Source: Eubacterium plexicaudatum ASF492
GTDB lineage: Bacteria; Bacillota; Clostridia; Lachnospirales; Lachnospiraceae
Direction: 5' to 3'
Length of the DNA: 64,000 nucleotides
Assembly: GCF_000364225.2 (NCBI RefSeq)
Contig: NZ_AQFT02000001.1
Coordinates: forward strand, 1,054,001 to 1,118,000
Part shown: positions 44,814 through 60,405 of the stretch, in pieces
How positions within the stretch are numbered: position 1 is the stretch's first letter
Layout of the letters: each line of letters begins with the position of its first letter
The notes under the pieces: model-generated
Told to the model about the DNA's origin: nothing
The model's input: the letters and a program-made list of their open reading frames with translations, nothing else
Databases searched by the model: none
Position numbers and translations under genes: made by a program

Positions 44814-46726
44814 CTATGCTTCAATAAACTGCTCTTTTCCTTCCGCACATTCCGGACATACCCAGTCCTGCGGCAATTTTTCAAATAACGTGCCCGGAGC
44901 AACTTCGGCATCCTCGTCACCGATTTCCGGAATATATTCATATCCGCATCCGCCGCATACGTAGCGTTTGCCAATTGGCGTCGGCTTTGGTGCCGGTGGG
45001 CGTTTCATTTTAACCATAGGCGGAGCAGGCTGTTTTTCTCCGGTACCCAAAGCTTCGGTTAAGAGCGGCAATATTTCGTTCACATCACCGACGATACCGT
45101 AGTCACAGTTTTTAAAGATCGGAGCATTGCCGTTTTTGTTAATGGCTACAATGGTAGAAGCATCCTTGATGCCTTTCAAATGCTGGGTAGCTCCGGAAAT
45201 ACCACAGGCAATATACAGGTTTCCGGTAAATTTCTGTCCGGACATGCCGACATAGCGGCTTAACGGTACATATTTTAACGTTTCGGCAACCGGACGAGAG
45301 GAGCCAATTGCAGCGCCGGCAGCCTTGGCCAGATTTTCAATCAGCTTCATGTTTTCTTTGGAACCGATGCCTTTTCCTGCGGAAACGACACGCTCTGCCT
45401 GCGCAATCGGCGTATCGGTTGCAATGCCTACGGTAAAATCATGGCCGTCCTTTTTCAGCGCGTCCACCAAAGCGGTTACTTTGTCGCCTGCGGCGCCGTC
45501 ACGGAAAATATGCCCTTTGCGCACACCTGTGATGGGAGCCGGTTTTTTTGCAGCGGAACGACTGCCGCCGCCGGAATCTTTCGGCATTTTTCCAATTAAA
45601 TTTGCTGCGATTACGACACGCTGGATCTCATTTGTACCTTCATAAATCGTTGTAATTTTGGCATCCCGGTACATTCTTTCAACATCCATACCTTTTAGGA
45701 ATCCGGTACCGCCAAAAATCTGCAGAGCGCTGTTTGTTACTTCCAAAGCGATATCGGAGGCATACATTTTTGCCATGGCAGCTTCCATCGCATACGGATC
45801 GTGATGTTCTTTTAATTCTGCGGCGGAATAAACTAAAAATCGAGCACAGCGCAGCTTTGTCGCCATATCTGCAAGCTTAAAAGAAATGCCCTGCTGAGCG
45901 GCAATCGGTTTGCCGAACTGGATTCGTTCTTTCGCATAGTCAAGCGCCTGTTCAAAAGCACCCTGTGCAATACCAAGCGCCTGAGCGGCAATACCGATGC
46001 GTCCGCCATCCAGTGTTGCCATAGCGATTTTAAACCCGTCGCCTTCTTTGCCAAGCAGATTTTCCTTCGGTACTTTGACATCGTTGAAAATCAGTTCGGC
46101 AGTCGTAGAAGAGCGGATGCCCATCTTGTCATAGTGATCGCCGAATTCAAAGCCGTCCCAGCCTTTTTCTACGATAAAAGCGGAAATACCGCGGGTGCCG
46201 ATATCCGGTGTCGTTACGGCGAATACGACGTATGTATCGGCTTTCGGAGCGTTAGTAATAAAATCTTGCCGCCGTTTAACAGATAGTAATCACCTTTATC
46301 CAGCGCGGTTGTTTCCGTACCACCGGCATCGGAACCGGCATTAGGTTCGGTCAGGCCAAAAGCGCCGATTTTTTCTCCTTTTGCAAGCGGAACAAGGTAT
46401 TTTTTCTTCTGCGCTTCATTTCCGAAAGCGAAAATCGGGAATGAGCCTAAGGATACATGGGCAGATAAAATAACGCCGGAACCGCCGTCAACTCTGGATA
46501 ATTCTTCTACGGCAATTGCATAGCTGTTAATGTCAAGTCCTGCACCCCCATATTCCTTCGGATATGGAATCCCCATAAGACCCATTTCTCCAAGTTTTTT
46601 TACGGCTTCGTCAGGAAAACGGTTTTCCTGATCTAAGGAAAAGGCGATCGGCTTGATCTCTTCTTCGGCAAAGGCACGGATCTTTGCGCGCAGCTGTTCT
46701 TGTTCTGGTGTTGTCTGGAATAACAT
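44814..46726 (-). CDS. Acyl-CoA dehydrogenase-EtfA-rubredoxin fusion, one frameshift
   Basis: One chain of about 637 residues holds three redox modules. Residues 1-380 are a butyryl/acyl-CoA dehydrogenase (LTEPNAGSDAGGTE, GRIGIAAQALGIAQGAFEQA, QIFGGTGFLKG, TTIYEGTNEIQRVV). After a Lys/Pro/Gly linker, residues 420-570 are the FAD-binding domain of electron-transfer flavoprotein alpha (AGKGIGSKENMKLIENLA, LYIACGISGATQHLKG, IVAINKNGNAPIFK). The last 50 residues are a rubredoxin with its four cysteines in YVCGGCGYEY and WVCPECAEG. The frame breaks at the A run 46260-46263 (plus strand) and one added base restores FITNAPKAD. AAAGGAGGCAATGCC precedes the ATG. The next gene encodes a flavodiiron protein. 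Confidence 0.93.
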
Positions 46727-49204: not shown

Positions 49205-49372
49205 ACTAGTGTATTGTATCATTGATATCTGTCAAAACTCCGCTGAACAGAGTTTCAGCGGCAAGGCGCCTGAACGAGTCGATGCGGTGGCATCGTTGAG
49301 TGAAGGTAACGCAATCCGATGGAAGCCTGGGCAAGGAGGTTTGGCTGAGTATCAATGATACAGTACACTAGT
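49205..49372. mobile_element. MITE-like element of 168 bp with RNA-like interior
   Basis: ACTAGTGTATTGTATCATTG (from 49205, arm to 49227) and the complement of 49350-49372 agree at 22 of 23 positions. The interior has no reading frame but folds readily: CCGCTGAA/TTCAGCGG (49240-49247 with 49254-49261) and CGATGC/GCATCG (49280-49285 with 49290-49295), inside a possible AGGC/GCCT outer stem. It is GC-richer than the DNA around it. Confidence 0.65.
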
Positions 49373-49518
49373 ACTACAGCGAACTTTTCAAATTTGTTTG
49401 TCTACTATAAACAAAAATCAACTATATGACATAACAGATTCTCAGTTGTTTTACATGAAAAACCTGCCCCAAATAGTTCCTTGGGAAAAGTAAATCAAAG
49501 AAAGTTCGCTGTAGTACT
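49370..49518. mobile_element. Second MITE-like element of 149 bp
   Basis: AGTACTACAGCGAACTTT (49370-49387) and its exact complement at 49501-49518 bound an AT-rich interior without a gene. Its left end overlaps the right end of the preceding element, and its right end provides the CTAG target of the next one. Confidence 0.7.
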
Positions 49519-50080
49519 AGAGCGTGTCTTAAAATTACCAATTGCTTGTGATTATGCTGAAAAGCAATGTAAAAATCAGCATTGAATCATATTCCAATGT
49601 ACGAAATGAGGTGTTGAATACTTTTATACAAAAGAATTTTTGTTCAGTTTTCCCTAAATTAATTTACACATGTTGTGTAATTTATAATTTTAAGACACAC
49701 TCTAAGTTCTTTGAAGATTTCTTTCAAAATGCCGCAGTCCAGCCATTTACGAAACCGGCTGTAGACACTTTTCCATGGACCGTAATATTCTGGCAGATCT
49801 CTCCATGGTGCGCCGCTTTTTACCATCCATACCATGGCGTTAAACATAATCCTGTTGCTTTTTCGTAGCCGGCCTGGTTTATTTGTTTGTTCAGGTGGAA
49901 GCAGCGGAGAAATTTTTTTCCATTCCTGGTTTGTTAATTCGTACCGTTTCAACATAATTAACACCGACACTTTCTTTTATCATAACACAGAAAAGGGAAT
50001 AGGAATATATGATTTGTGCAATTTATACATACACAAATTTATATAGTTTATGTAGTTTTTAATTTTAAGACACACTCTAG
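49517..50080. mobile_element. IS5-family deletion derivative containing a nested MITE
   Basis: CTAG is duplicated at 49517-49520 and 50077-50080, matching the YTAR target of IS5-type elements. The outer inverted ends are AGCGTGTCTTAAAATTA (49521-49537) and the near-complement TAATTTTAAGACACACT (50060-50076). A further copy of the right end lies at 49685-49701 followed by CTAA, so 49521-49701 is itself a small element of 181 bases. The remaining part holds only an N-terminal transposase fragment. Confidence 0.7.
49706..49949 (-). pseudogene. N-terminal fragment of an IS5-family transposase
   Basis: The minus-strand frame reads the typical IS5 N-terminus: YELTNQEWKKISPLLPPE, IMFNAMVWMVKSGAPWRDLP and YGPWKSVYSRFRKWLDCGI. 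It breaks off at KEIFKEL where the nested element begins, before any catalytic residue. It could only act, if at all, as a DNA-binding fragment. Confidence 0.85.
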
Positions 50081-50172: not shown

Positions 50173-50200
50173 TTGACTTTTGTCGATTTTTTGGTATTAT
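50173..50200 (+). promoter_or_regulatory. Promoter of the RiPP cluster
   Basis: TTGACT (50173-50178) and TATTAT (50195-50200) are 16 bases apart, 62 bases before the precursor ATG. Confidence 0.6.
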
Positions 50201-50262
50201 ATATTTTCAGTTATGAGAAATAGCAAACGAAAAATTGTATTTTTAATAAGGAGGGTGTCTTA

Positions 50263-50361
50263 ATGGAGTATACTAAACCTACTGTTATTACCACTGAGAA
50301 GGTAAACTCTGCTAAGTGTGGAGATGGTCCTTGCGGAAGACCTTGTGACCAAAAAGCGTAA
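50263..50361 (+). CDS. Cys-rich RiPP precursor peptide (32 residues)
   Basis: A strong ribosome site (AAGGAGGGTG) precedes an ATG opening a 32-codon frame. The first half, MEYTKPTVITTEKVNSA, looks like a leader; YTKPTV fits the Y-x-x-P pattern that PqqD-like domains recognise in several RiPP classes. The second half, KCGDGPCGRPCDQKA, is a short Cys/Gly/Pro core with C-x4-C-x3-C spacing. The gene lies between its own promoter and a hairpin, and is followed by a radical SAM maturase with an N-terminal PqqD-like domain. Nothing in the peptide resembles a signal peptide. I do not recognise the family; thioether or other radical-made crosslinks at the cysteines are the likely product. Confidence 0.8.
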   Translation: MEYTKPTVITTEKVNSAKCGDGPCGRPCDQKA

Positions 50362-50382
50362 TATACAGGATTATGTAGAACG

Positions 50383-50418
50383 AGGATGCAGAGTGACTTA
50401 TCACTGCGTCCTTTTTTT
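50383..50418 (+). terminator. Hairpin between precursor and maturase genes
   Basis: AGGATGCAGAGTGA and TCACTGCGTCCT form an imperfect stem followed by seven T residues. Placed directly after the precursor, it likely lets the peptide be made in excess over the enzymes. Confidence 0.75.
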
Positions 50419-50453
50419 CTGAAGAAATTCTACTGATGAGAGGTAAGAGAGTA

Positions 50454-51907
50454 ATGTATTATAAAATAAGACAAGATGTATTGTTTAGACAATATGACGA
50501 ATATGGATTAATAACAGATAACTCCGAATATGGATATAGAATGATAAATGATACAAGACGTTTACGCGGTGAGAAATATGTTTCGAAAAGTGGAGCTGTA
50601 ATGTTGGCAGCACTTGATAGAAATCCTAAAAATATTGATGATATAGTTGATGAATTGGTCCATATTTTTGTAGGTGTTGATTTAGAAACATTAAAAAAGG
50701 ATACTGTTGAGTTTTTGCAATATTTTGTTGATGAAGGGTTTTTGTGTATTGGAGAGAACGAAGATAGTTGCCAAAATTATGAAAACAAGAAATTAAATGA
50801 AAATGATAATTCGGAAAATACTACAATTGCATTTAATTCGGATGATTGTGAAAAAAGCATATTTAAGACAAACGAATTTCTTAGAAGTATTCATATTGAA
50901 ATTGCAAATGCATGTAATGAACGGTGTGTTCATTGTTATATTCCACATAAGTATAAAACAAATGTTATAGACTCTGACCTTTTTTACAGAATTATTGAAG
51001 AAGGGAGACAAATGAATATTATACACGTTACTTTATCTGGAGGTGAACCACTTTTACACAAAGATATTGTTGAATTTTTAATAAAATGTAGAAAATTGGA
51101 TTTGTCAGTTAATGTTTTATCTAATTTAACATTGTTAACAGATGAAATAGTAGACGAAATGAAGCAAAATCCATTATTATCAGTTCAGACATCAATATAT
51201 GCAATGAATCCTGACGTCCACGATGAGATAACAAAATTACAGGGAAGTTTAGAAAAGACAATTTGTGGGTTAAAAAACTGATGAAAGCCAAGATACCTGT
51301 ACAGATTTCCTGTCCAGTTATGAAACAAAATAAAGATGATTTTATAAATGTTATTAGATGGGGGTATGATAATAATATTTATGTCGCAGTTGAACCAGTT
51401 ATTTTTGCATCATATGATCATACAGGTGAAAATTTGTCAAATCGCTTATCTTTAGAGGAAATTGGCAAAGTTTTTGATTATGAGTTAACAGAGGGTTATG
51501 CTGAAACAATTAGCAATTTTGCTAAAGAAAAAGAAGCATTGAAGGATGATGATCCTATATGTTCAATATGCAGATATAGTTTTTGTATATCAGTAACAGG
51601 AGAGGTCTATCCTTGCGTAGGATGGCAATCAAATGTTATTGGGACTTTAGATAACCAAAATTTGAGTGAGATATGGAAAAACTCTGATAAAATAAAGTGT
51701 TTACGAAAGATAAAACGAAAAGATTTTGTGAAATGTGTTGATTGCAAAGATAAAGGTTATTGTACTGTATGCATGATGAGCAATTCAAATGAAAATCAAG
51801 ATGGTGATGCATTTAGAATTAATGAACTATATTGTAATGTAGCTAAATTGAAACATGAAAAATTAACTATTTACAGGAACAAAAGTTCGGGTGGAGGGAA
51901 GAACTAA
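50454..51907 (+). CDS. Radical SAM/SPASM peptide maturase with PqqD-like domain, one frameshift
   Basis: The 484-residue protein starts with a PqqD-like leader-binding domain (about residues 1-100: MYYKIRQDVLFRQYDE, LDRNPKNIDDIVDEL). The radical SAM core has the 4Fe-4S motif CNERCVHC and the SAM-binding LSGGEPLLH. The C-terminal SPASM region holds many cysteines (CSICRYSFC, YPCVGWQ, CVDCKDKGYCTVC), which usually bind two extra clusters. Such enzymes install thioether or C-C bonds in peptides. The frame breaks in the A run 51272-51277; one more A joins both parts. I chose the ATG at 50454, but 50436 is possible. Codon use is AT-rich, unlike the flanks. Confidence 0.9.
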
Positions 51908-53203
51908 ATGTTATGGAAAAAATAATCATAAAAGATGCTTATGAGAATAATTTAAAGCATTTGGACATTCAGATACCATTAGATGCTTTTACTTGTGTCA
52001 CCGGATGTTCTGGGTGTGGCAAATCTTCACTGGTTTTTGATACGTTGTATGCAGAGAGTCAACGTGGATTTCTTGAGGGAATGACAGGCAACATTTATAG
52101 TCAGAAATTAATGAATAAACCAAAAGTAATGTCCATAGAGAATCTTAGACCGGCACTGAATATTTCTCAGAACTATTATAATGTTAATCCCAGATCTACA
52201 ATTGGAACTATTACTGAAATATCCTATTATCTTAGGACACTATTCTCTTTAGTAAATAGCGATGCTAAAATTGGAATTTCTGAAAATATTTTTTCGTCGA
52301 ATAATCCAAAAACATTTTGCCCTAATTGTAATGGGCTAGGGGTTGAGATGGTTGTTTCTCCAGAACTTTTGATTCCAGATCCTGATAAAACCTTAAGAGA
52401 TGGTGCTATTCTTTATTTTAAAGGATCAGCAGAAAGCAAAGAACAAAAATGTCTTGAAGCCATATGTGACCATTATGGTATTGATATAGACAAAAAATAT
52501 TCTGATTTAACAAAGAATGAAATAAATATGCTTTTATATACAGAAGAAGTATTAAAAGTAAAAATTTCTTATAAAGACGGGAAACGTAAAAAGCAGCATT
52601 TTGTTTCTATTCAAGGGGTTATCCCACTATTGAAAAAAAATTTTTCAAGTGCCGATTCTAAGGCACAAGCAGCACCTTATTCTAAGTATGTAGAGACTAC
52701 TGCATGTCATGTATGTAATGGAGCAAAACTTGGTCAGAAAGCCCTTGCATATACTTTAGGTGGATTGAACTATCATGAAATTGAAAGTTTAGAAATAACT
52801 TCATTGAAATCTTGGCTAGAAAATCTTAAAGATAAGAGAATAACGGAAGAAAAAAAGGTATTAGTAGAACAATTAAAAGATAGCATTCTTCAAAAGGTAA
52901 AGGCGTTAATAGAACTAAATGTGGGATATTTATGCTTAAATAGATCGGTGCCATCGCTTTCAGGTGGCGAAAGGCAACGTGTGAGGATTGCTAAACAGTT
53001 AACATGTCCATTAAAAGGTTTGATATATATATTGGATGAACCTTGTAAAGGCTTACATCATAGAGATATTGTACACATTATAGATGCAACAAGAAATCTC
53101 ATTCAAAAGGGGAATACTGTTATAGCAATTGAACATGATAAGCAATATATATCAAAGGCTGATTATAGGATTGAATTGGGGCCTGTTGGCGGACCAGAGG
53201 GTG

Positions 53204-54897
53204 GATATCTAATCAGCTCTGACGATTAAATTATGGATTTATCAGTGCCAATTACATATATCTTTCAATATATTGCAACTTTTGATGATAGTATTTTAAA
53301 ACAAAAAACTCCCCCTGCTGTAATTTTGAAAACGCTTTTAGGTTATTGTGCCATATCCGGGCATCCCCCCTTTCCAGTGCATTCCATTACCGGAACCTTA
53401 TCTGAAAGCGCTTTCCTGTTTCATGCCTGTGTTCTGATAACTTTATATTCTGGAATGATTCAAATATCCGGCTGTGCTTTTCCGACAGGGACAGCGCTGT
53501 GCTTTTCCAGAGTTTTTCCCACGCCTCCATTATCTGGGATATCATATGCCCGATCTGTATCAGGTAATAATGGTTTTTCAATGCCTGATAGTTCCTGCTG
53601 AATAAATGTTCCAGATAATATCCGTGTTTTTTCTGCGCGTTAAAGCCTTCGTTTTCTATTTTCCACCGCCTCCTTCCGGCTTCCACCAGTGCAGCCACAT
53701 TTTTCTGATTAACGGGAAGGTCCGTCAGAAACAGGAACCCTGCCTTTATGTTTTCTGTCTCCCCTTTCCTGCTTCCCTTTTTTATCAGCACATCCCGCTC
53801 CTCCCTGTATTCTGCAATGTTTACCTTATGACCGTTATAATCAATGTCCGTAACGAAATCATGCCAGCATGTTCCGTTAATGAGTTCCTGTTTCCGGCAG
53901 TTTTTCTCTGTTTTTTCAGCCTGCCGTATTCATCTGAAACCGTCGGAATGCTGCCTTCCTTATACCGCAGAATATAGCGCCATCCGCTGTCGCGGCATTT
54001 TATGAAAAAATTCTCACATGCATAAAGGCTGTCTGCGCAAAGGCAGACAGGAAGCTTTGGAAATTCTTTCTTAAGCCGTTCCATCAGTCTGTAGCATGCT
54101 TTCAGCTCACAGTCCTGTTTTTCTGCTTCTTCCCCGCCGGTATTTTCTACAAATTCTGTCATAATGCTTACAATAATGTCCGGATGGAGAACAATTTTTG
54201 CTTCCAGTATATAATAGTAATATTCCGTATACTCCCTGCCAGTCCCCTTATTATGAACCCTGTACAGGCTTTTTGCATCCAGTTTTCTGCGGCTGCTGTG
54301 AATCTGCGTCCCGTCTGCAATCACCTGCCAGTATCTGTTCCGGATTCGTGCACCTGCAAATGCGCGGCTGCGCACCAGCCTGTATACAAGCCGGCAGACA
54401 GTATCCTGCAGTTCTTCCGGATCCAGCCTTTCAAGGTATTTATTTATCGTTTCCCAGTAAGGAATTTCATCTGCGGATGCGCTTTCCCCGCACATTTCCC
54501 AGATATTCTGTATAACTGTATCAGAATTAAATTTCTGGCTTGTTTTTCTCATGCTGCTGATATAGAATATAGAAGAAAGGATACGGGTCATGAGAAGTAT
54601 GACATTGGGATAGGTAATGTAACTCTGATTTCTGGGATCTTCTGTCTGTTTTAACAGGCGGGCCAGGTCAGGGAAAAAATGTTTTATAACCTTAACAAGT
54701 TCTACTGCAAGATGAAACTGTTCCAGATGTTTACGTGCCTCTTTCCGTGTCACTTTTGTTTTCATAAAAAAGCCTCCCTTCTTTACGTGGATAATGCGAA
54801 AAAATAATTTTGGGTTAATTATATTATCGCTTATTTTCCCGCAAAATGGGAGGTTTTTTTGCGAAAAATTTTTAATCGTCAGAGCTGGATATCTAAT
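53204..54897. mobile_element. IS (1674 bp) inserted in the UvrA-like gene
   Basis: GATATCTAAT is duplicated at 53204-53213 and 54888-54897. The element 53214-54887 has perfect 17-base inverted ends, CAGCTCTGACGATTAAA and its complement. It carries one transposase on the minus strand. Joining the flanks restores GGYLMSAGAKK in the UvrA-like frame. Its base composition is higher in GC than the island around it. Confidence 0.92.
53387..54765 (-). CDS. DDE transposase of the IS in the UvrA-like gene, one frameshift
   Basis: About 459 residues after repair at the T run 53911-53916 (plus strand). Probable catalytic residues are the aspartates in VIADGTQIHSSRRK and LCADSLYACENFF and the glutamate in RRRWKIENEGFNAQKKHGY. 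The DGT and W-x-I-E-x-x-F pattern places it near the IS4 superfamily, but I cannot name the subgroup. The ATG at 54765 (MKTKVTRKEA) follows GGGAGGC. Confidence 0.85.
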
Positions 54898-55969
54898 GAG
54901 TGCAGGTGCGAAAAAATATAATCAGAAAATGATGTTTGATTTTAAGGAATCAACAGTGTTAAAAGATTTTTTGAAGTTTGAAAATATAAGTTTTAGAAAT
55001 ATTTCACAGCAAAACGCTATGTTTCCAATTGGAGGAATTACATGTATTACAGGTGTTTCAGGTTCTGGTAAATCCACACTAGCGACTGCTGTTGCAGAAA
55101 GTTTTGATAAGAATAGAGCCAAAAAATATGGTGAGATTTATGGCGGAGAATCAATTAAACGGATAATCAAAGTGACTCAATCTCCTATTGGTAAAACACC
55201 GCGTTCAACTGTTGCGTCTTATTTGGAAATTTTTGATGAAATAAGGACATTGTTTTCAAAAATAAGTGCTGCAAAAAAACTTAAATTGTCACCTTCCATG
55301 TTTAGTATGAATGTTAAAGGCGGACGATGTGAATGTTGTCAGGGAACAGGTCTTCAAAAAATAGAACTTAATTTTCTTCCTAGTACATATATTACTTGCC
55401 CCGAATGTAACGGTCAAAGGTACAGTGATGAAATTCTTTCAGTTACTTATCAAGGAAAAACTATACTGGATGTGTTAGAAACACCTATATCTGAAATTAT
55501 TGAGATCTTTAGGGATACAAAAAAGTATATTCGGTTTTGAATAGTATGATTGAATTAGGATTAGGATATTTGACTTTGGGACAAATGTCTATGAATCTGT
55601 CTGGAGGTGAAGCACAACGTATAAAATTGGCTAAAGCACTAGGTGTACTGTCAGGCGGGCAAAGTTTATATATTCTCGATGAGCCTACATCTGGGTTGAA
55701 TGAAATTGATATTGCAAAATTTCAGAACGTACTTTTTTCATTACAGAAAAAAGGAGAAACAATTTTAATTATAGAACATAATCTTGAATTTGTAGCTAAG
55801 GTTGCAGATTATATCATAGATTTTGGAGTATATGGTGGCAATTCAGGTGGAAAGATTGTTGCTCAAGGAGATCCCAAAGACGTTTTTGCGTCAAAAACTT
55901 CTTCGTTATACAAGTTAGACAAATAAATATCAATAATATGAGAATAAAAATATTGCGGAGAGAATTTTT

Positions 55970-57025
55970 ATGGTGGATGAAAATACAATTAATCAATGCT
56001 CTGTTGTTTTAACAAGAAATTGTAATTTACGATGTAATTTTTGCTATGTAAAAGATGCAGGGTATTATGAAAATGAAATGGTGAGCTTTGAAAACCTAAA
56101 AAAAATAGTTGATTTCTGTTGTGATGCAAAAGTAAAGTATGTGTTTTTTACTGGGGGTGAACCTTTATTATATCCCTATCTTAATGATATTTTGGTATAC
56201 ATAAAAGAAAAGGAACATCCAATAACAACTGCAATTGCAACAAATGGAATTCTTCTTGAAGATTTTCAGTTTAGCAAAAGATTGATGGATAGTGGTTTGG
56301 ATTATATTGATGTTTCCATGAAAGGAAGAAATTCACAGGAATGGATGAATACTACTGGAAGTGATGGGTATATTAAACAACAAAAAGCAATCAAAAATCT
56401 ATCTTTGCTGCAAATGGAATTTACTTGCTCTATGGTTGTAACTTTAAAAAATGTATACTCGTTATGTGATTCGATTAAAACAGCACTTGAGAATGGAGCG
56501 AAACAATTTTCGTTTACATTTGTTATAGATAATGATAAAAACATTGATACAAATGTGCCGTATATAAAAAATCATAATCCTTTTAAACTTATTGAATCAT
56601 TCATATCACAAATGGGAAAATTGAACAATATAACAAACGAATGGTGGATTGAATATAGCTTCCCACTATGTGTGTATACAGAAAAGCAATTACATTTGTT
56701 AAAAGGAAAATTGGCAACTCCCTGTCAAATTCACAAGAAAAATGCTGTCACATTTGATACTCAATTAAATCTACTGCCTTGTGATATGTATTTCGACAGG
56801 AAGATTGGAAAGTTAGGTGAAGATTTTGTTAGTATTAATGAATTTTTAGAATTAAGAAAAAATAATCCATATAAGAACACAATAGAAGATATTAGTCGTT
56901 TACCTTCTGAAAAGTGTGTAAATTGTCAATATTTTGACAAGTGCTATGGTGGGTGTCCTGTTTTATGGAATAATTATTCATTTGATGAGCTAAGTGCATA
57001 TAAAGAAAGATTAATTAACCAGTGA
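55970..57025 (+). CDS. Second radical SAM/SPASM peptide maturase
   Basis: The 351-residue enzyme has the cluster motif CNLRCNFC, the SAM motif FTGGEPLLY and a C-terminal SPASM-like set of cysteines (LATPCQIHKK, LLPCDMYF, CVNCQYFDKCYGGCPV). Unlike the first maturase it lacks a PqqD-like domain, so it may rely on the first enzyme or on a pre-modified substrate. GGAGAG lies seven bases before the ATG at 55970. It ends the RiPP operon, 43 bases after the UvrA-like gene. The frame is intact and AT-rich. Confidence 0.9.
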   Translation: MVDENTINQCSVVLTRNCNLRCNFCYVKDAGYYENEMVSFENLKKIVDFCCDAKVKYVFFTGGEPLLYPYLNDILVYIKEKEHPITTAIATNGILLEDFQFSKRLMDSGLDYIDVSMKGRNSQEWMNTTGSDGYIKQQKAIKNLSLLQMEFTCSMVVTLKNVYSLCDSIKTALENGAKQFSFTFVIDNDKNIDTNVPYIKNHNPFKLIESFISQMGKLNNITNEWWIEYSFPLCVYTEKQLHLLKGKLATPCQIHKKNAVTFDTQLNLLPCDMYFDRKIGKLGEDFVSINEFLELRKNNPYKNTIEDISRLPSEKCVNCQYFDKCYGGCPVLWNNYSFDELSAYKERLINQ

Positions 57026-57375: not shown

Positions 57376-57434
57376 GAAACCGTGGCAGGGATTTGATAAT
57401 TTCATTACCATACATTCATGCAGAAAGGTGGTGG

Positions 57435-58424
57435 ATGCCGCTGAAAGCAGATACAGTTACAAAGGATTATGTAAAAGATGCTGGTGTATTTGCCGACATT
57501 TTTAATTACTATATTTACGGCGGGCGGCAGGTGATCCTGCCGGAGCAGCTTACGGAGCGTGACCCTACTAAAATTGCGCTGCCATACGGTGCGGACGGTG
57601 CAGTGGTTCCCGTCCAGAAATTCCGTGACGTGCAGAAGCTGTATGCGGCAATGACGGATGGGAAAATGGCGTATGTCCTTTATGGTGCGGAGAACCAGGC
57701 AGAAATTCATTATGCTATGGCTGTGAAGAACAATCTCTATGATGCACTGGAGTACGCAGGGCAGGTGGAAGAAGCGGCAAAGTCACACCGGAAGGAAATG
57801 AAACGGAAAAAGGAGCAGGGGGAAGTTTATGCTGAAGAATGTAGGAAAATTCTAAACAAAGGTGAATTCTTAAGCGGTTTTTGGGCAGAAGACAGACTGA
57901 TACCATCCATCACGGTGACTATATTTTTCGGCTCGGAAGAATGGGATGGGCCGTTAAGCTTATTAGATATGATGGATGTGTCAGACCCGGAAGTGCTTGC
58001 CTGTATGGATAATTATCATGTGCGTCTGATTGCTCCGGCGCAGATGACGGATGAGGAGATCATGAAATTCCAGTCTAGCCTGCGGGAGGTTATGCTGTTT
58101 ATTAAGTATTCGAAGGACAAGGAAAACTTAAGCAGGGTATTAGCGGCAAATGAAAGGCGTTTTCGGGAAGTGGAACGCAGGGCGGCAGATGTGATTGAAG
58201 CAATTACTAATTCGGGCATAAAATATGATGAAGAAGACGAGGTGGTAAATGTGTGTCAGGCGATTCAGGAAATGAGAAAAGAATCTGAACGGGATGGAGA
58301 ATTAAAGAAAGCCAGGGAAGCTGCTGGAAAATTGTATGAAATGGGACTTGACACAGAGAAGATAGTCCAGGTGGTTGGCTACACTGTGGAAACAGTAAAG
58401 GGCTGGATTGGCCTTGAATCATAA
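57435..58424 (+). CDS. Rpn family recombination-promoting nuclease / PD-(D/E)XK protein
   Basis: The 329-residue protein resembles Rpn/transposase_31-type nucleases common in clostridial genomes. The N-terminal third has the phosphodiesterase fold pattern: DVFADIFNYYIYGG-like AGVFADIFNYYIYGGRQ, DGAVVPVQKFRDVQ, and YVLYGAENQAEIHYAMAVK, where the acidic and Gln-containing motif is the likely active site. The C-terminal helix region ends in MGLDTEKIVQVVGYTVETVK, a short helical motif also usual in the family. I chose the ATG at 57435 because AGAAAGGTGGTGG precedes it. Such genes move between genomes and fit this mobile region. Confidence 0.8.
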   Translation: MPLKADTVTKDYVKDAGVFADIFNYYIYGGRQVILPEQLTERDPTKIALPYGADGAVVPVQKFRDVQKLYAAMTDGKMAYVLYGAENQAEIHYAMAVKNNLYDALEYAGQVEEAAKSHRKEMKRKKEQGEVYAEECRKILNKGEFLSGFWAEDRLIPSITVTIFFGSEEWDGPLSLLDMMDVSDPEVLACMDNYHVRLIAPAQMTDEEIMKFQSSLREVMLFIKYSKDKENLSRVLAANERRFREVERRAADVIEAITNSGIKYDEEDEVVNVCQAIQEMRKESERDGELKKAREAAGKLYEMGLDTEKIVQVVGYTVETVKGWIGLES

Positions 58425-58904: not shown

Positions 58905-60363
58905 ATGACTATTGAAAAATTAACGGAACAAATGGACTATCGGCTTTTGACAGGAAGTTGCAGTCAGGAAATTTCAGCGCTTGTTTATGATTCTCGAAAG
59001 ATTGTACCAGGATGTATGTTTGTATGCATCAAAGGAGCAGTTTTTGACGGGCATACGTGTATTGACGAAGCCGCACAAAAACAGGCTGCAGCAGTCGTTG
59101 TCGAGCAGGATGTGCAGGTTCCGGCCGGAATGGCGGTATTAAAAGTGCCGGATACGAGACGGGCGCTGGCCGAGCTGTCTGCAGCGTGGTTTCACCATCC
59201 GGCAAAGCAGCTGAAAACAATCGGCATTACCGGAACAAAAGGCAAAACGACGACGACGTATATGATAAAATCAATTTTGGAAAGCACCGGAAGGAAAGTG
59301 GGACTGATCGGCACGATTGAGGTTGTGATCGGGGATGAGCATATACCGGCAGCAAATACGACGCCGGAATCTTACCTGATTCAGCAGTATTTTCGTAAAA
59401 TGGTTGATGCAGGCTGCGATGCCTGTGTCATGGAAGTGTCTTCCCAGGGGCTTATGATGCACCGCGTGGGTGGATTTACCTTTGACATCGGTATTTTACC
59501 AATATTGAGCCGGATCATATCGGCCCGAACGAGCATGCTTCATTTGAAGATTATCTGGACTGTAAAAGAAAGCTGTTTCAGCAGTGTAAAACAGGTATTG
59601 TGAATGCGGACGATGCACATGTAAATGATATGATCAAAGGGCACACATGTGAGATCGAAACCTATGGATTTTCCGATCAGGCGGATCTTCGGGCGCAGGA
59701 CATACGGCTGATACACAGACCGGGATACCTTGGGGTTGCATACCATGCCGCAGGCATTTGTGATTTTGATGTGGAAATTGACGTACCAGGCAAATTCAGT
59801 GTATACAATTCTCTGACGGCAGTCGCCGTATGCAGACATTTTCAGGTGCCGGTGGAAAATATGAAACAGGCGTTGAGACAGGCAAAGGTGAAAGGCCGGA
59901 TTGAAATGGTGAAAGTATCCGACGAGTTTACCCTGATGATTGACTATGCGCACAATGCAATGAGCCTTAAGAGTCTGCTGACGACTTTGCGTGAATATGA
60001 GCCAGGAAGACTTGTCTGCCTGTTTGGGTGCGGCGGGAACCGCAGTAAAATCCGCCGTTATGAAATGGGAGAGGTGTCCGGCAGACTGGCCGACCTTACC
60101 ATTGTTACCTCAGACAATCCAAGGTACGAGGAACCTCAGGCGATTATAGACGATATTAAACAGGGAATCGCAAAGACGGATGGGCAATATGTAGAGATTG
60201 CCGACCGGAAAGAAGCGATTCGTTATGCGATTCAAAACGGCAGAGCAGGCGATGTCATTGTACTGGCCGGAAAGGGTCATGAAGATTATCAGGAAATCTG
60301 CGGAAAAAATATCCGATGGATGAGCGGGAAATCATCGCAGACATTTTGGCGGACAGATCATAA
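58905..60363 (+). CDS. murE: UDP-MurNAc-tripeptide synthetase (meso-DAP adding), two frameshifts
   Basis: MurE adds meso-diaminopimelate to UDP-MurNAc-L-Ala-D-Glu in the cytoplasm. Conserved segments are the ATP loop GITGTKGKTTTTYM, NTTPESYLIQQYF, VMEVSSQGL, DYAHNAMSL and SDNPRYEEP, whose DNPR motif indicates diaminopimelate rather than lysine. The frame breaks at the T run 59494-59497 (one more T gives IGIFTNIEPDHIG) and again near 60313-60317 (one more base gives IRMDEREIIADIL), and the repaired protein is 486 residues. AATGGAGG precedes the ATG. priA follows 42 bases later. As an essential gene the shifts must be sequence errors or the copy is not the functional one. Confidence 0.94.
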
Positions 60364-60405
60364 GTGATAAAACGGCTTATGAGGTAAAATGATAGGGAAC
60401 AGACT

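What the first reader, a model, noticed from the sequence alone, without database searches (positions are those of the whole stretch)
50173..57025. Radical-SAM RiPP island with a 32-residue Cys-rich precursor, two maturases and a UvrA-like ATPase
Seen: promoter, a tiny gene with a strong ribosome site encoding a peptide with core KCGDGPCGRPCDQKA, a hairpin, then a PqqD-domain radical SAM/SPASM enzyme, a UvrA2/DrrC-like ATPase and a second radical SAM/SPASM enzyme without PqqD domain. All genes are collinear, closely spaced and markedly AT-richer than the flanks, and mobile elements border the island on both sides. Known: PqqD-like domains bind leaders and SPASM enzymes crosslink Cys-containing peptides. 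Inferred: a new RiPP in which two radical enzymes act in turn on three cysteines. The combination with a UvrA-type protein and no obvious protease or exporter in the island is unlike the sactipeptide, ranthipeptide or CXXX-repeat clusters I know.
Basis: partly seen in the sequence, partly recalled or inferred. Interest (0 to 1): 0.88.

Follow-up and report, generated by a model that had tools for sequence, protein, structure and literature searches.

The report
UvrA-guarded radical-SAM peptide cluster
A four-gene cassette, scattered among distantly related anaerobic bacteria, appears to make a tiny modified peptide with two radical enzymes and carries a DNA-guarding type of protein between them, which suggests a peptide that acts on DNA; the copy in this window is interrupted and probably no longer works.

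Summary
The RiPP locus is real, but the window copy is damaged. A transposon (53214-54887) splits the UvrA-like gene, and frame changes cut rSAM1 and the UvrA-like 3' part; the frame changes may be assembly errors, since murE is split too.

Eleven relatives in other genomes carry precursor - rSAM1 (PqqD/SPASM) - UvrA-like - rSAM2 in that order (L033 keeps only a UvrA-like remnant); 9 of 11 have all four open. Precursors share a leader (MxYxKPxV) and a core near KCGxGP[C/S]GRP[C/S] under strong purifying selection (pS 0.69, pN 0.05). Cys1 and PxGRP are kept in 12 of 12; Cys2 and Cys3 each fail in 2 of 12, so three cysteines are not the common substrate.

[quoted passage not shown] Best reading: a DNA-acting radical-SAM RiPP with UvrA-type self-resistance. 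That function is inferred, not shown. Neither maturase reaches any NCBIfam family cut-off listed, and my paper searches found no such system.

The parts
50173..50200 (+). promoter-like site (TTGACT, 16, TATTAT, with TG before the second hexamer)
   Evidence: 10 of 12; 4 sites found against 1.8 expected in the stretch
50263..50361 (+). precursor peptide gene, MEYTKPTVITTEKVNSAKCGDGPCGRPCDQKA
   Evidence: homologous ORF at the same place in 11 of 11 relatives
50382..50416 (+). hairpin followed by a T run between precursor and rSAM1, possible attenuator
   Evidence: a like hairpin by eye in 9 of the 10 loci folded, not L033; not called by the terminator scan
50454..51281 (+). rSAM1, 5' piece: PqqD-like domain and radical SAM core; frame ends here
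51263..51907 (+). rSAM1, 3' piece in another frame: SPASM domain
51913..53213 (+). UvrA-like ATPase, 5' piece, with UvrA insertion (DNA-binding) domain PF17755
53214..54887 (-). insertion sequence inside the UvrA-like gene: 17-bp inverted ends, 10-bp target duplication (up to 12 bp if the ends are drawn inward); transposase itself in two frames
54888..55540 (+). UvrA-like ATPase, middle piece, second Walker A; frame ends here
55537..55926 (+). UvrA-like ATPase, 3' piece in another frame, second signature and Walker B
55970..57025 (+). rSAM2, radical SAM enzyme without PqqD domain, SPASM-like cysteine pattern; open

Best explanation
A minimal radical-SAM RiPP system whose product acts on DNA and whose producer protects itself with a UvrA2-type ATPase. 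Steps: (1) a 32-33 aa precursor is made; its MxYxKPxV leader is bound by the PqqD-like domain of rSAM1 (inferred from domains). (2) rSAM1 and rSAM2, which has no such domain of its own, modify the Cys1/PxGRP core, probably by thioether or other crosslinks; Cys2 and Cys3 are used where present (inferred). (3) The compact basic product binds DNA (inferred). (4) The UvrA-like protein, lacking the UvrB-binding domain, clears the product from DNA with ATP and without UvrBC, as reported for Ecm16 (inferred from architecture). Leader removal and export use enzymes outside the cassette, or do not occur. Shown here: the four-gene unit and its conservation, selection on the core, the UvrA2-type architecture, and the interruption of the window copy.
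For: Same four genes in the same order in 11 relatives, 9 of 11 with all four open, while flanking genes change. Core pS 0.69 against pN 0.05 in 36 pairs of 9 loci. UvrA-like: 94-95 + 43 residues with 2 + 2 cysteines, the place of the UvrB-binding domain and zinc module, are missing against 4 of 5 housekeeping UvrA reading frames (the fifth is cut off in its locus); insertion domain kept, 79.6 and 72.3 bits; Walker, signature and remaining zinc residues invariant in 9 of 9; D. radiodurans UvrA2 (2vf7) matched in one stretch, residues 5-763. A separate full-length UvrA exists in 7 of 7 cassette genomes searched, so this is not the housekeeping copy. Ecm16 lacks the same domain and protects E. 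coli without UvrABCD (PMC10192343, abstract and passages). The cassette travels as a unit: its tree does not follow the families and it is AT-richer than its flanks in 10 of 11 loci measured. In both loci with a broken UvrA-like gene another part is also damaged (window rSAM1; L033 precursor).
Against: No product, modification or DNA binding is shown. No protease or exporter is shared, odd for a secreted toxin. By score the UvrA-like protein is closer to housekeeping UvrA structures (572 bits) than to UvrA2 (483) or Ecm16 (335). L032 has a broken precursor with open enzymes and UvrA-like gene. The coupled damage rests on two loci, and the window frame changes may be sequence errors.
Confidence: 0.52

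Rival explanations
1. The modified peptide stays in the cell and works with the UvrA-like ATPase, for instance as a ligand or cofactor in genome or mobile-element defence; the UvrA-like protein is the effector, not an immunity protein.
For: No shared exporter or protease. One cassette (L029) lies next to BREX-type genes, PglZ 235 bits and BrxA 185 bits. The UvrA-like protein is the best conserved of the three enzymes.
Against: Defence genes beside the cassette were seen in one locus only. The match of the UvrA-like protein to the PADLOC model mad3 (219 bits) is general: two housekeeping UvrAs score higher (378 and 358 bits). The pVip matches of both maturases cover the radical SAM core only.
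Confidence: 0.2
2. An ordinary sactipeptide or ranthipeptide bacteriocin acting on membrane or other targets; the UvrA-like gene serves something unrelated.
For: rSAM2's best NCBIfam match in the window is the PapB ranthipeptide maturase model (78.8 bits); rSAM1's predicted fold is nearest to SuiB and to a sactipeptide thioether enzyme, 5why.
Against: PapB score far under its cut-off of 340; the UvrA-like gene sits between the two maturases in 10 of 11 relatives and as a remnant in the other; Cys2 and Cys3 are not invariant while PxGRP is.
Confidence: 0.17
3. The enzymes oxidise Cys or Ser to formylglycine-like aldehydes, as sulfatase-maturing SPASM enzymes do, giving a DNA-reactive aldehyde peptide.
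For: Cys-to-Ser swaps at positions 2 and 3; sulfatase-maturing enzyme structures among the fold matches of both maturases. That such enzymes accept Cys or Ser is recalled.
Against: Three swaps only, and Cys to Ser is a common change; those fold matches rank below other SPASM enzymes; Cys1 never swaps.
Confidence: 0.06
4. The window locus is merely a decayed remnant without present function.
For: Insertion sequence in the UvrA-like gene and two frame changes.
Against: This describes the window copy, not the system, which is open in 9 of 11 relatives; precursor and rSAM2 are open here; murE in the same window is also split, so frame changes may be errors. Against that, the housekeeping UvrA of the same genome is one open frame of 985 codons.
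Confidence: 0.75

Closest known systems
UvrA2-class self-resistance proteins (Ecm16 of echinomycin; DrrC of daunorubicin; D. radiodurans UvrA2)
   Same: No UvrB-binding domain or its zinc module, insertion domain and two ATPase sites kept, gene within a peptide cluster (PMC10192343 passages)
   Different: Those clusters are non-ribosomal peptides or polyketides of actinomycetes (partly recalled); here a radical-SAM RiPP, mostly in Bacillota. Resistance is untested.
Sactipeptides and ranthipeptides with SPASM maturases (SkfB, CteB, PapB)
   Same: PqqD-type domain plus SPASM radical SAM enzyme, Cys-containing short core
   Different: Under the listed family cut-offs; Cys2 and Cys3 replaceable; no CX3D/E motif (motif recalled); UvrA-like gene in the unit; no shared exporter
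Two-maturase radical SAM RiPPs (thuricin CD, ruminococcin C; abstracts seen in listings)
   Same: Two radical SAM enzymes in one cluster
   Different: Here one enzyme lacks the PqqD domain and a UvrA-like gene lies between them
Microcin B17
   Same: A RiPP whose target is DNA metabolism (gyrase; PMC8183687 passages)
   Different: Azole chemistry, no radical SAM enzyme, no UvrA-like immunity (recalled)

Membership tests
RiPP biosynthetic cluster | short precursor ORF beside modifying enzymes, under purifying selection | tested here: met
   11 of 11 relatives, one with a broken frame; core pN 0.05 against pS 0.69
RiPP biosynthetic cluster | leader-binding domain (RRE) | tested here: met
   PqqD 31.1 bits in the window copy, cut-off 23.4; 21.8 bits, just under, in L034; rSAM2 has none in 3 of 3 scanned
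RiPP biosynthetic cluster | enzymatic modification of the peptide | not testable with these tools
   needs mass spectrometry
PapB-type ranthipeptide maturase (NF047865) | score at or above the curated cut-off of 340 bits | tested here: not met
   78.8, 80.6 and 72.5 bits
PapB-type ranthipeptide | CX3D/E motif in the core (recalled) | tested here: not met
   by reading the 12 precursors: no D or E four residues after a Cys
Sactipeptide | Cys to alpha-carbon thioethers | not testable with these tools
   needs mass spectrometry or NMR
UvrA2/Ecm16 class | UvrB-binding domain and its zinc module absent | tested here: met
   94-95 + 43 residues, 2 + 2 Cys, missing against 4 of 5 housekeeping frames, fifth cut off
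UvrA2/Ecm16 class | insertion domain and both ATPase sites kept | tested here: met
   PF17755 79.6 and 72.3 bits; motifs invariant in 9 of 9
UvrA2/Ecm16 class | protects against the cluster's DNA-binding product | not testable with these tools
   needs product and bench test
Housekeeping UvrA (TIGR00630, NF001503) | score at or above the curated cut-off | tested here: not met
   L034: 697 against 729.8 and 723 against 1147 bits
AT-hook peptide | profile match to AT-hook | tested here: not met
   no AT-hook match in 6 of the 12 precursors at E up to 10; short peptides may fall under the filters

The most novel reading that the evidence does not exclude
The core P[C/S]GRP is a ribosomal, radical-crosslinked analogue of the AT-hook (PRGRP, recalled): a tiny constrained minor-groove binder, kept off the producer's own DNA by a dedicated UvrA-type ATPase. 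It would be a radical-SAM RiPP that targets DNA directly.
Probability: 0.15. Interest if true: 0.9.

Novelty: new variant of a known kind. Interest (0 to 1): 0.72.

Why it matters
It joins two known parts that I did not find together in the papers searched: radical-SAM peptide maturation and a UvrA-type protein of the self-resistance class. If the link holds, it points to a small, genetically encoded DNA-acting scaffold made by four genes, gives a search handle (a UvrA2-type gene between radical SAM enzymes) for genotoxic RiPPs in anaerobes, and offers a simple system to ask how UvrA-type ATPases clear ligands from DNA.

Tried and rejected
Second-tier rSAM1 relatives (G1098, G998, G919; E 8e-47 to 8e-31) were opened. 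By reading, the stretches taken show no UvrA-like gene, rSAM2 or like precursor beside them (G998 carries other large genes), so I did not count them as members.

Phage or plasmid origin: no tblastn match of rSAM2 in 50,697 phage or 72,556 plasmid records at 1e-20. One viral-contig scan gave only a 24% match. No tRNA in the window, L022 or L025.

A defence system: PADLOC matches of the UvrA-like protein are general, since two housekeeping UvrAs score higher.

AT-hook by profile: none in 6 precursors, so that resemblance rests on reading alone and is post hoc.

Reading chemistry from folds: models are moderate (pLDDT 77.8 and 72.0) and matches are general radical SAM/SPASM relatives; no reaction was inferred.

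I added the PADLOC control, the promoter scan and a second Pfam scan. Best-explanation odds were set at 0.52.
Full report
What is in the window. A 32-aa ORF (50263-50361) with a good ribosome site is followed by a hairpin with a T run (the terminator scan did not call it). Then come a PqqD + radical SAM + SPASM enzyme (50454-51907, in two frames), a UvrA-like ATPase (51913-55926, in pieces) and a second radical SAM enzyme (55970-57025). The stretch is 34% GC against 44% in its flanks.

The window copy is damaged. An insertion sequence of 1674 bp with 17-bp inverted ends and a 10-bp target duplication lies inside the UvrA-like gene. rSAM1 changes frame at about 51263-51281 and the UvrA-like gene at about 55537. 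Both frame changes may be sequence errors: murE in the same window is likewise split in two frames, and an acyl-CoA dehydrogenase too, and the assembly is rated 92.9% complete with 7.1% contamination. On the other side, the housekeeping UvrA of this genome is one open frame of 985 codons. The insertion sequence, with its clean duplication, looks real. So this copy is probably inactive, though precursor and rSAM2 are open.

Relatives. With the window's own genome counted, rSAM2 relatives at strong scores were found in 3 of 392 genomes of the order (E 1e-35), 1 of 398 of the phylum and 2 of 397 of the family (E 1e-50); in the first search, 1 of 60 other genomes. L029 is G046 and L034 is G329, seen before. 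MAG names may reflect misbinning.

Order and state. In 9 of 11 (L026-L031, L034, L035, L142) all four genes are open and in the same order. L032 has open enzymes but a precursor broken in frame. L033 has a precursor ending before the third Cys and, at this place, only a remnant of the UvrA-like gene, with both radical SAM genes open. Among 446 flank ORFs of 11 loci (window included, L142 not), the only similarities at E 1e-8 are four between L027 and L035 and one weak 28% match between L027 and L028. So no protease or exporter belongs to the unit.

The peptide. In 10 precursors aligned without gaps (L030, with one extra residue, and L032, broken, left out), M1, Y3, K5, P6, A17, K18, C19, G20, G22, P23, G25, R26 and P27 are invariant; position 24 is Cys in 9 and Ser in 1; position 28 is Cys in 8, Ser in 1, Arg in 1. 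L030 has Val for K18 and an extra Thr before the first Pro of the core. Over all 12, Cys1 and PxGRP are kept; Cys2 is Ser in 2 (L031, L032) and Cys3 is Ser or absent in 2 (L028, L033). In 9 loci (36 pairs; L033, L032, L142 left out, the extra codon of L030 dropped) the core shows pS 0.69 and pN 0.05, the leader pS 0.68 and pN 0.32: a translated peptide with strong purifying selection on the core.

The UvrA-like protein. Against 4 of 5 housekeeping UvrA frames from carrier genomes it lacks 94-95 + 43 residues with 2 + 2 cysteines; the fifth frame is cut off in its locus. [quoted passage not shown] It keeps the insertion domain (79.6 bits in the window, 72.3 in L034) and invariant Walker, signature and other zinc residues in 9 of 9. 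D. radiodurans UvrA2 (2vf7) is matched in one stretch (5-763, 483 bits) and Ecm16 (7sh1) at 335 bits, but housekeeping UvrA structures score higher, up to 572 bits. Among 196 genomes of the order only the two cassette carriers reach 1e-150, and 7 of 7 carrier genomes have a separate full-length UvrA. The insertion-domain region is less conserved (0.57) than ATP-binding domain I (0.80). The Ecm16 paper (PMC10192343, abstract and passages) reports that Ecm16 lacks the same domain, needs its insertion domain to bind DNA, needs its ATPase, and protects E. coli K12 without UvrABCD.

The maturases. Both are under the cut-off of every NCBIfam family model listed (the window lists are capped at 25; the L034 and L030 lists stop at 1e-15); only the general SPASM domain model is just reached, 28 against 27 bits, by the rSAM1 3' piece. 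rSAM2 shows invariant cysteines in SPASM-like spacing but no Pfam SPASM match in 3 of 3 scanned. Predicted folds resemble SuiB, 5why and SkfB for rSAM1 and BlsE, DesII and SkfB for rSAM2.

Interpretation. The constancy of the unit with changing neighbours, the UvrA2-type architecture and the known use of such proteins argue for self-resistance against a DNA-acting peptide. Both loci with a broken UvrA-like gene have another lesion, as expected if the guard can be lost only when the product is not made, but two loci prove little and one lesion may be a sequence error. The lack of an exporter speaks for borrowed export or an intracellular role. PxGRP recalls the AT-hook core PRGRP (recalled); this is post hoc and no profile supports it.

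Spread. The tree of three strung enzymes from 9 loci groups L. saburreum with an Oscillospiraceae MAG and Butyrivibrio with a Eubacterium MAG, each fully supported; pairwise distances of the three enzymes correlate at 0.65 to 0.82. The cassette is AT-richer than its flanks in 10 of 11 loci measured, not in L030. A phage-type integrase gene lies near the cassette in L142. Transfer as a unit is likely. No rSAM2 match at 1e-20 in the phage and plasmid collections.

Literature. Searches: radical SAM + UvrA + RiPP + precursor peptide, 0 papers; core letters, 0; radical SAM + excinuclease + RiPP, 1, a proteomics paper seen as a listing; UvrA + RiPP + self-resistance, 3, of which PMC10413001 was searched for passages and only names RiPPs among cluster classes and two were seen as listings. 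PMC9062424 and PMC4289311 were searched for UvrA and excinuclease: no occurrence. Most subscription papers and all preprints are outside this library, so 'not described' is limited to these searches.

Noticed in passing
window 58905-60367: murE lies in two overlapping frames, the halves matching positions 1-200 and 235-471 of one 486-position model: sequence error or a broken essential gene.
   Followed up: partly
window 44814-46726 (- strand): An acyl-CoA dehydrogenase is split; its C-terminal half is fused in one frame to the end of an electron transfer flavoprotein alpha subunit.
   Followed up: no
window 49517-50080: A small element with 21-nt inverted ends around a transposase fragment (PF13340); a second perfect 20-nt inverted pair lies at 49368-49520.
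   Followed up: no
L025 3580-3643 and 8852-8915: The cassette of Butyrivibrio NC3005 lies between two 64-nt direct repeats, 94% alike: a possible trace of its insertion.
   Followed up: no
L029 1416-3577: PglZ and BrxA genes (BREX type) lie upstream of the cassette.
   Followed up: partly
L028 11338-11949; window 57393-58424: YhgA-like (Transposase_31) genes lie directly downstream of the cassette in both, the window one under the Pfam cut-off, with no mutual match at 1e-8.
   Followed up: no
L027 and L035 flanks: These two loci share further flank ORFs (50-77% identity), probably one mobile-element type.
   Followed up: no
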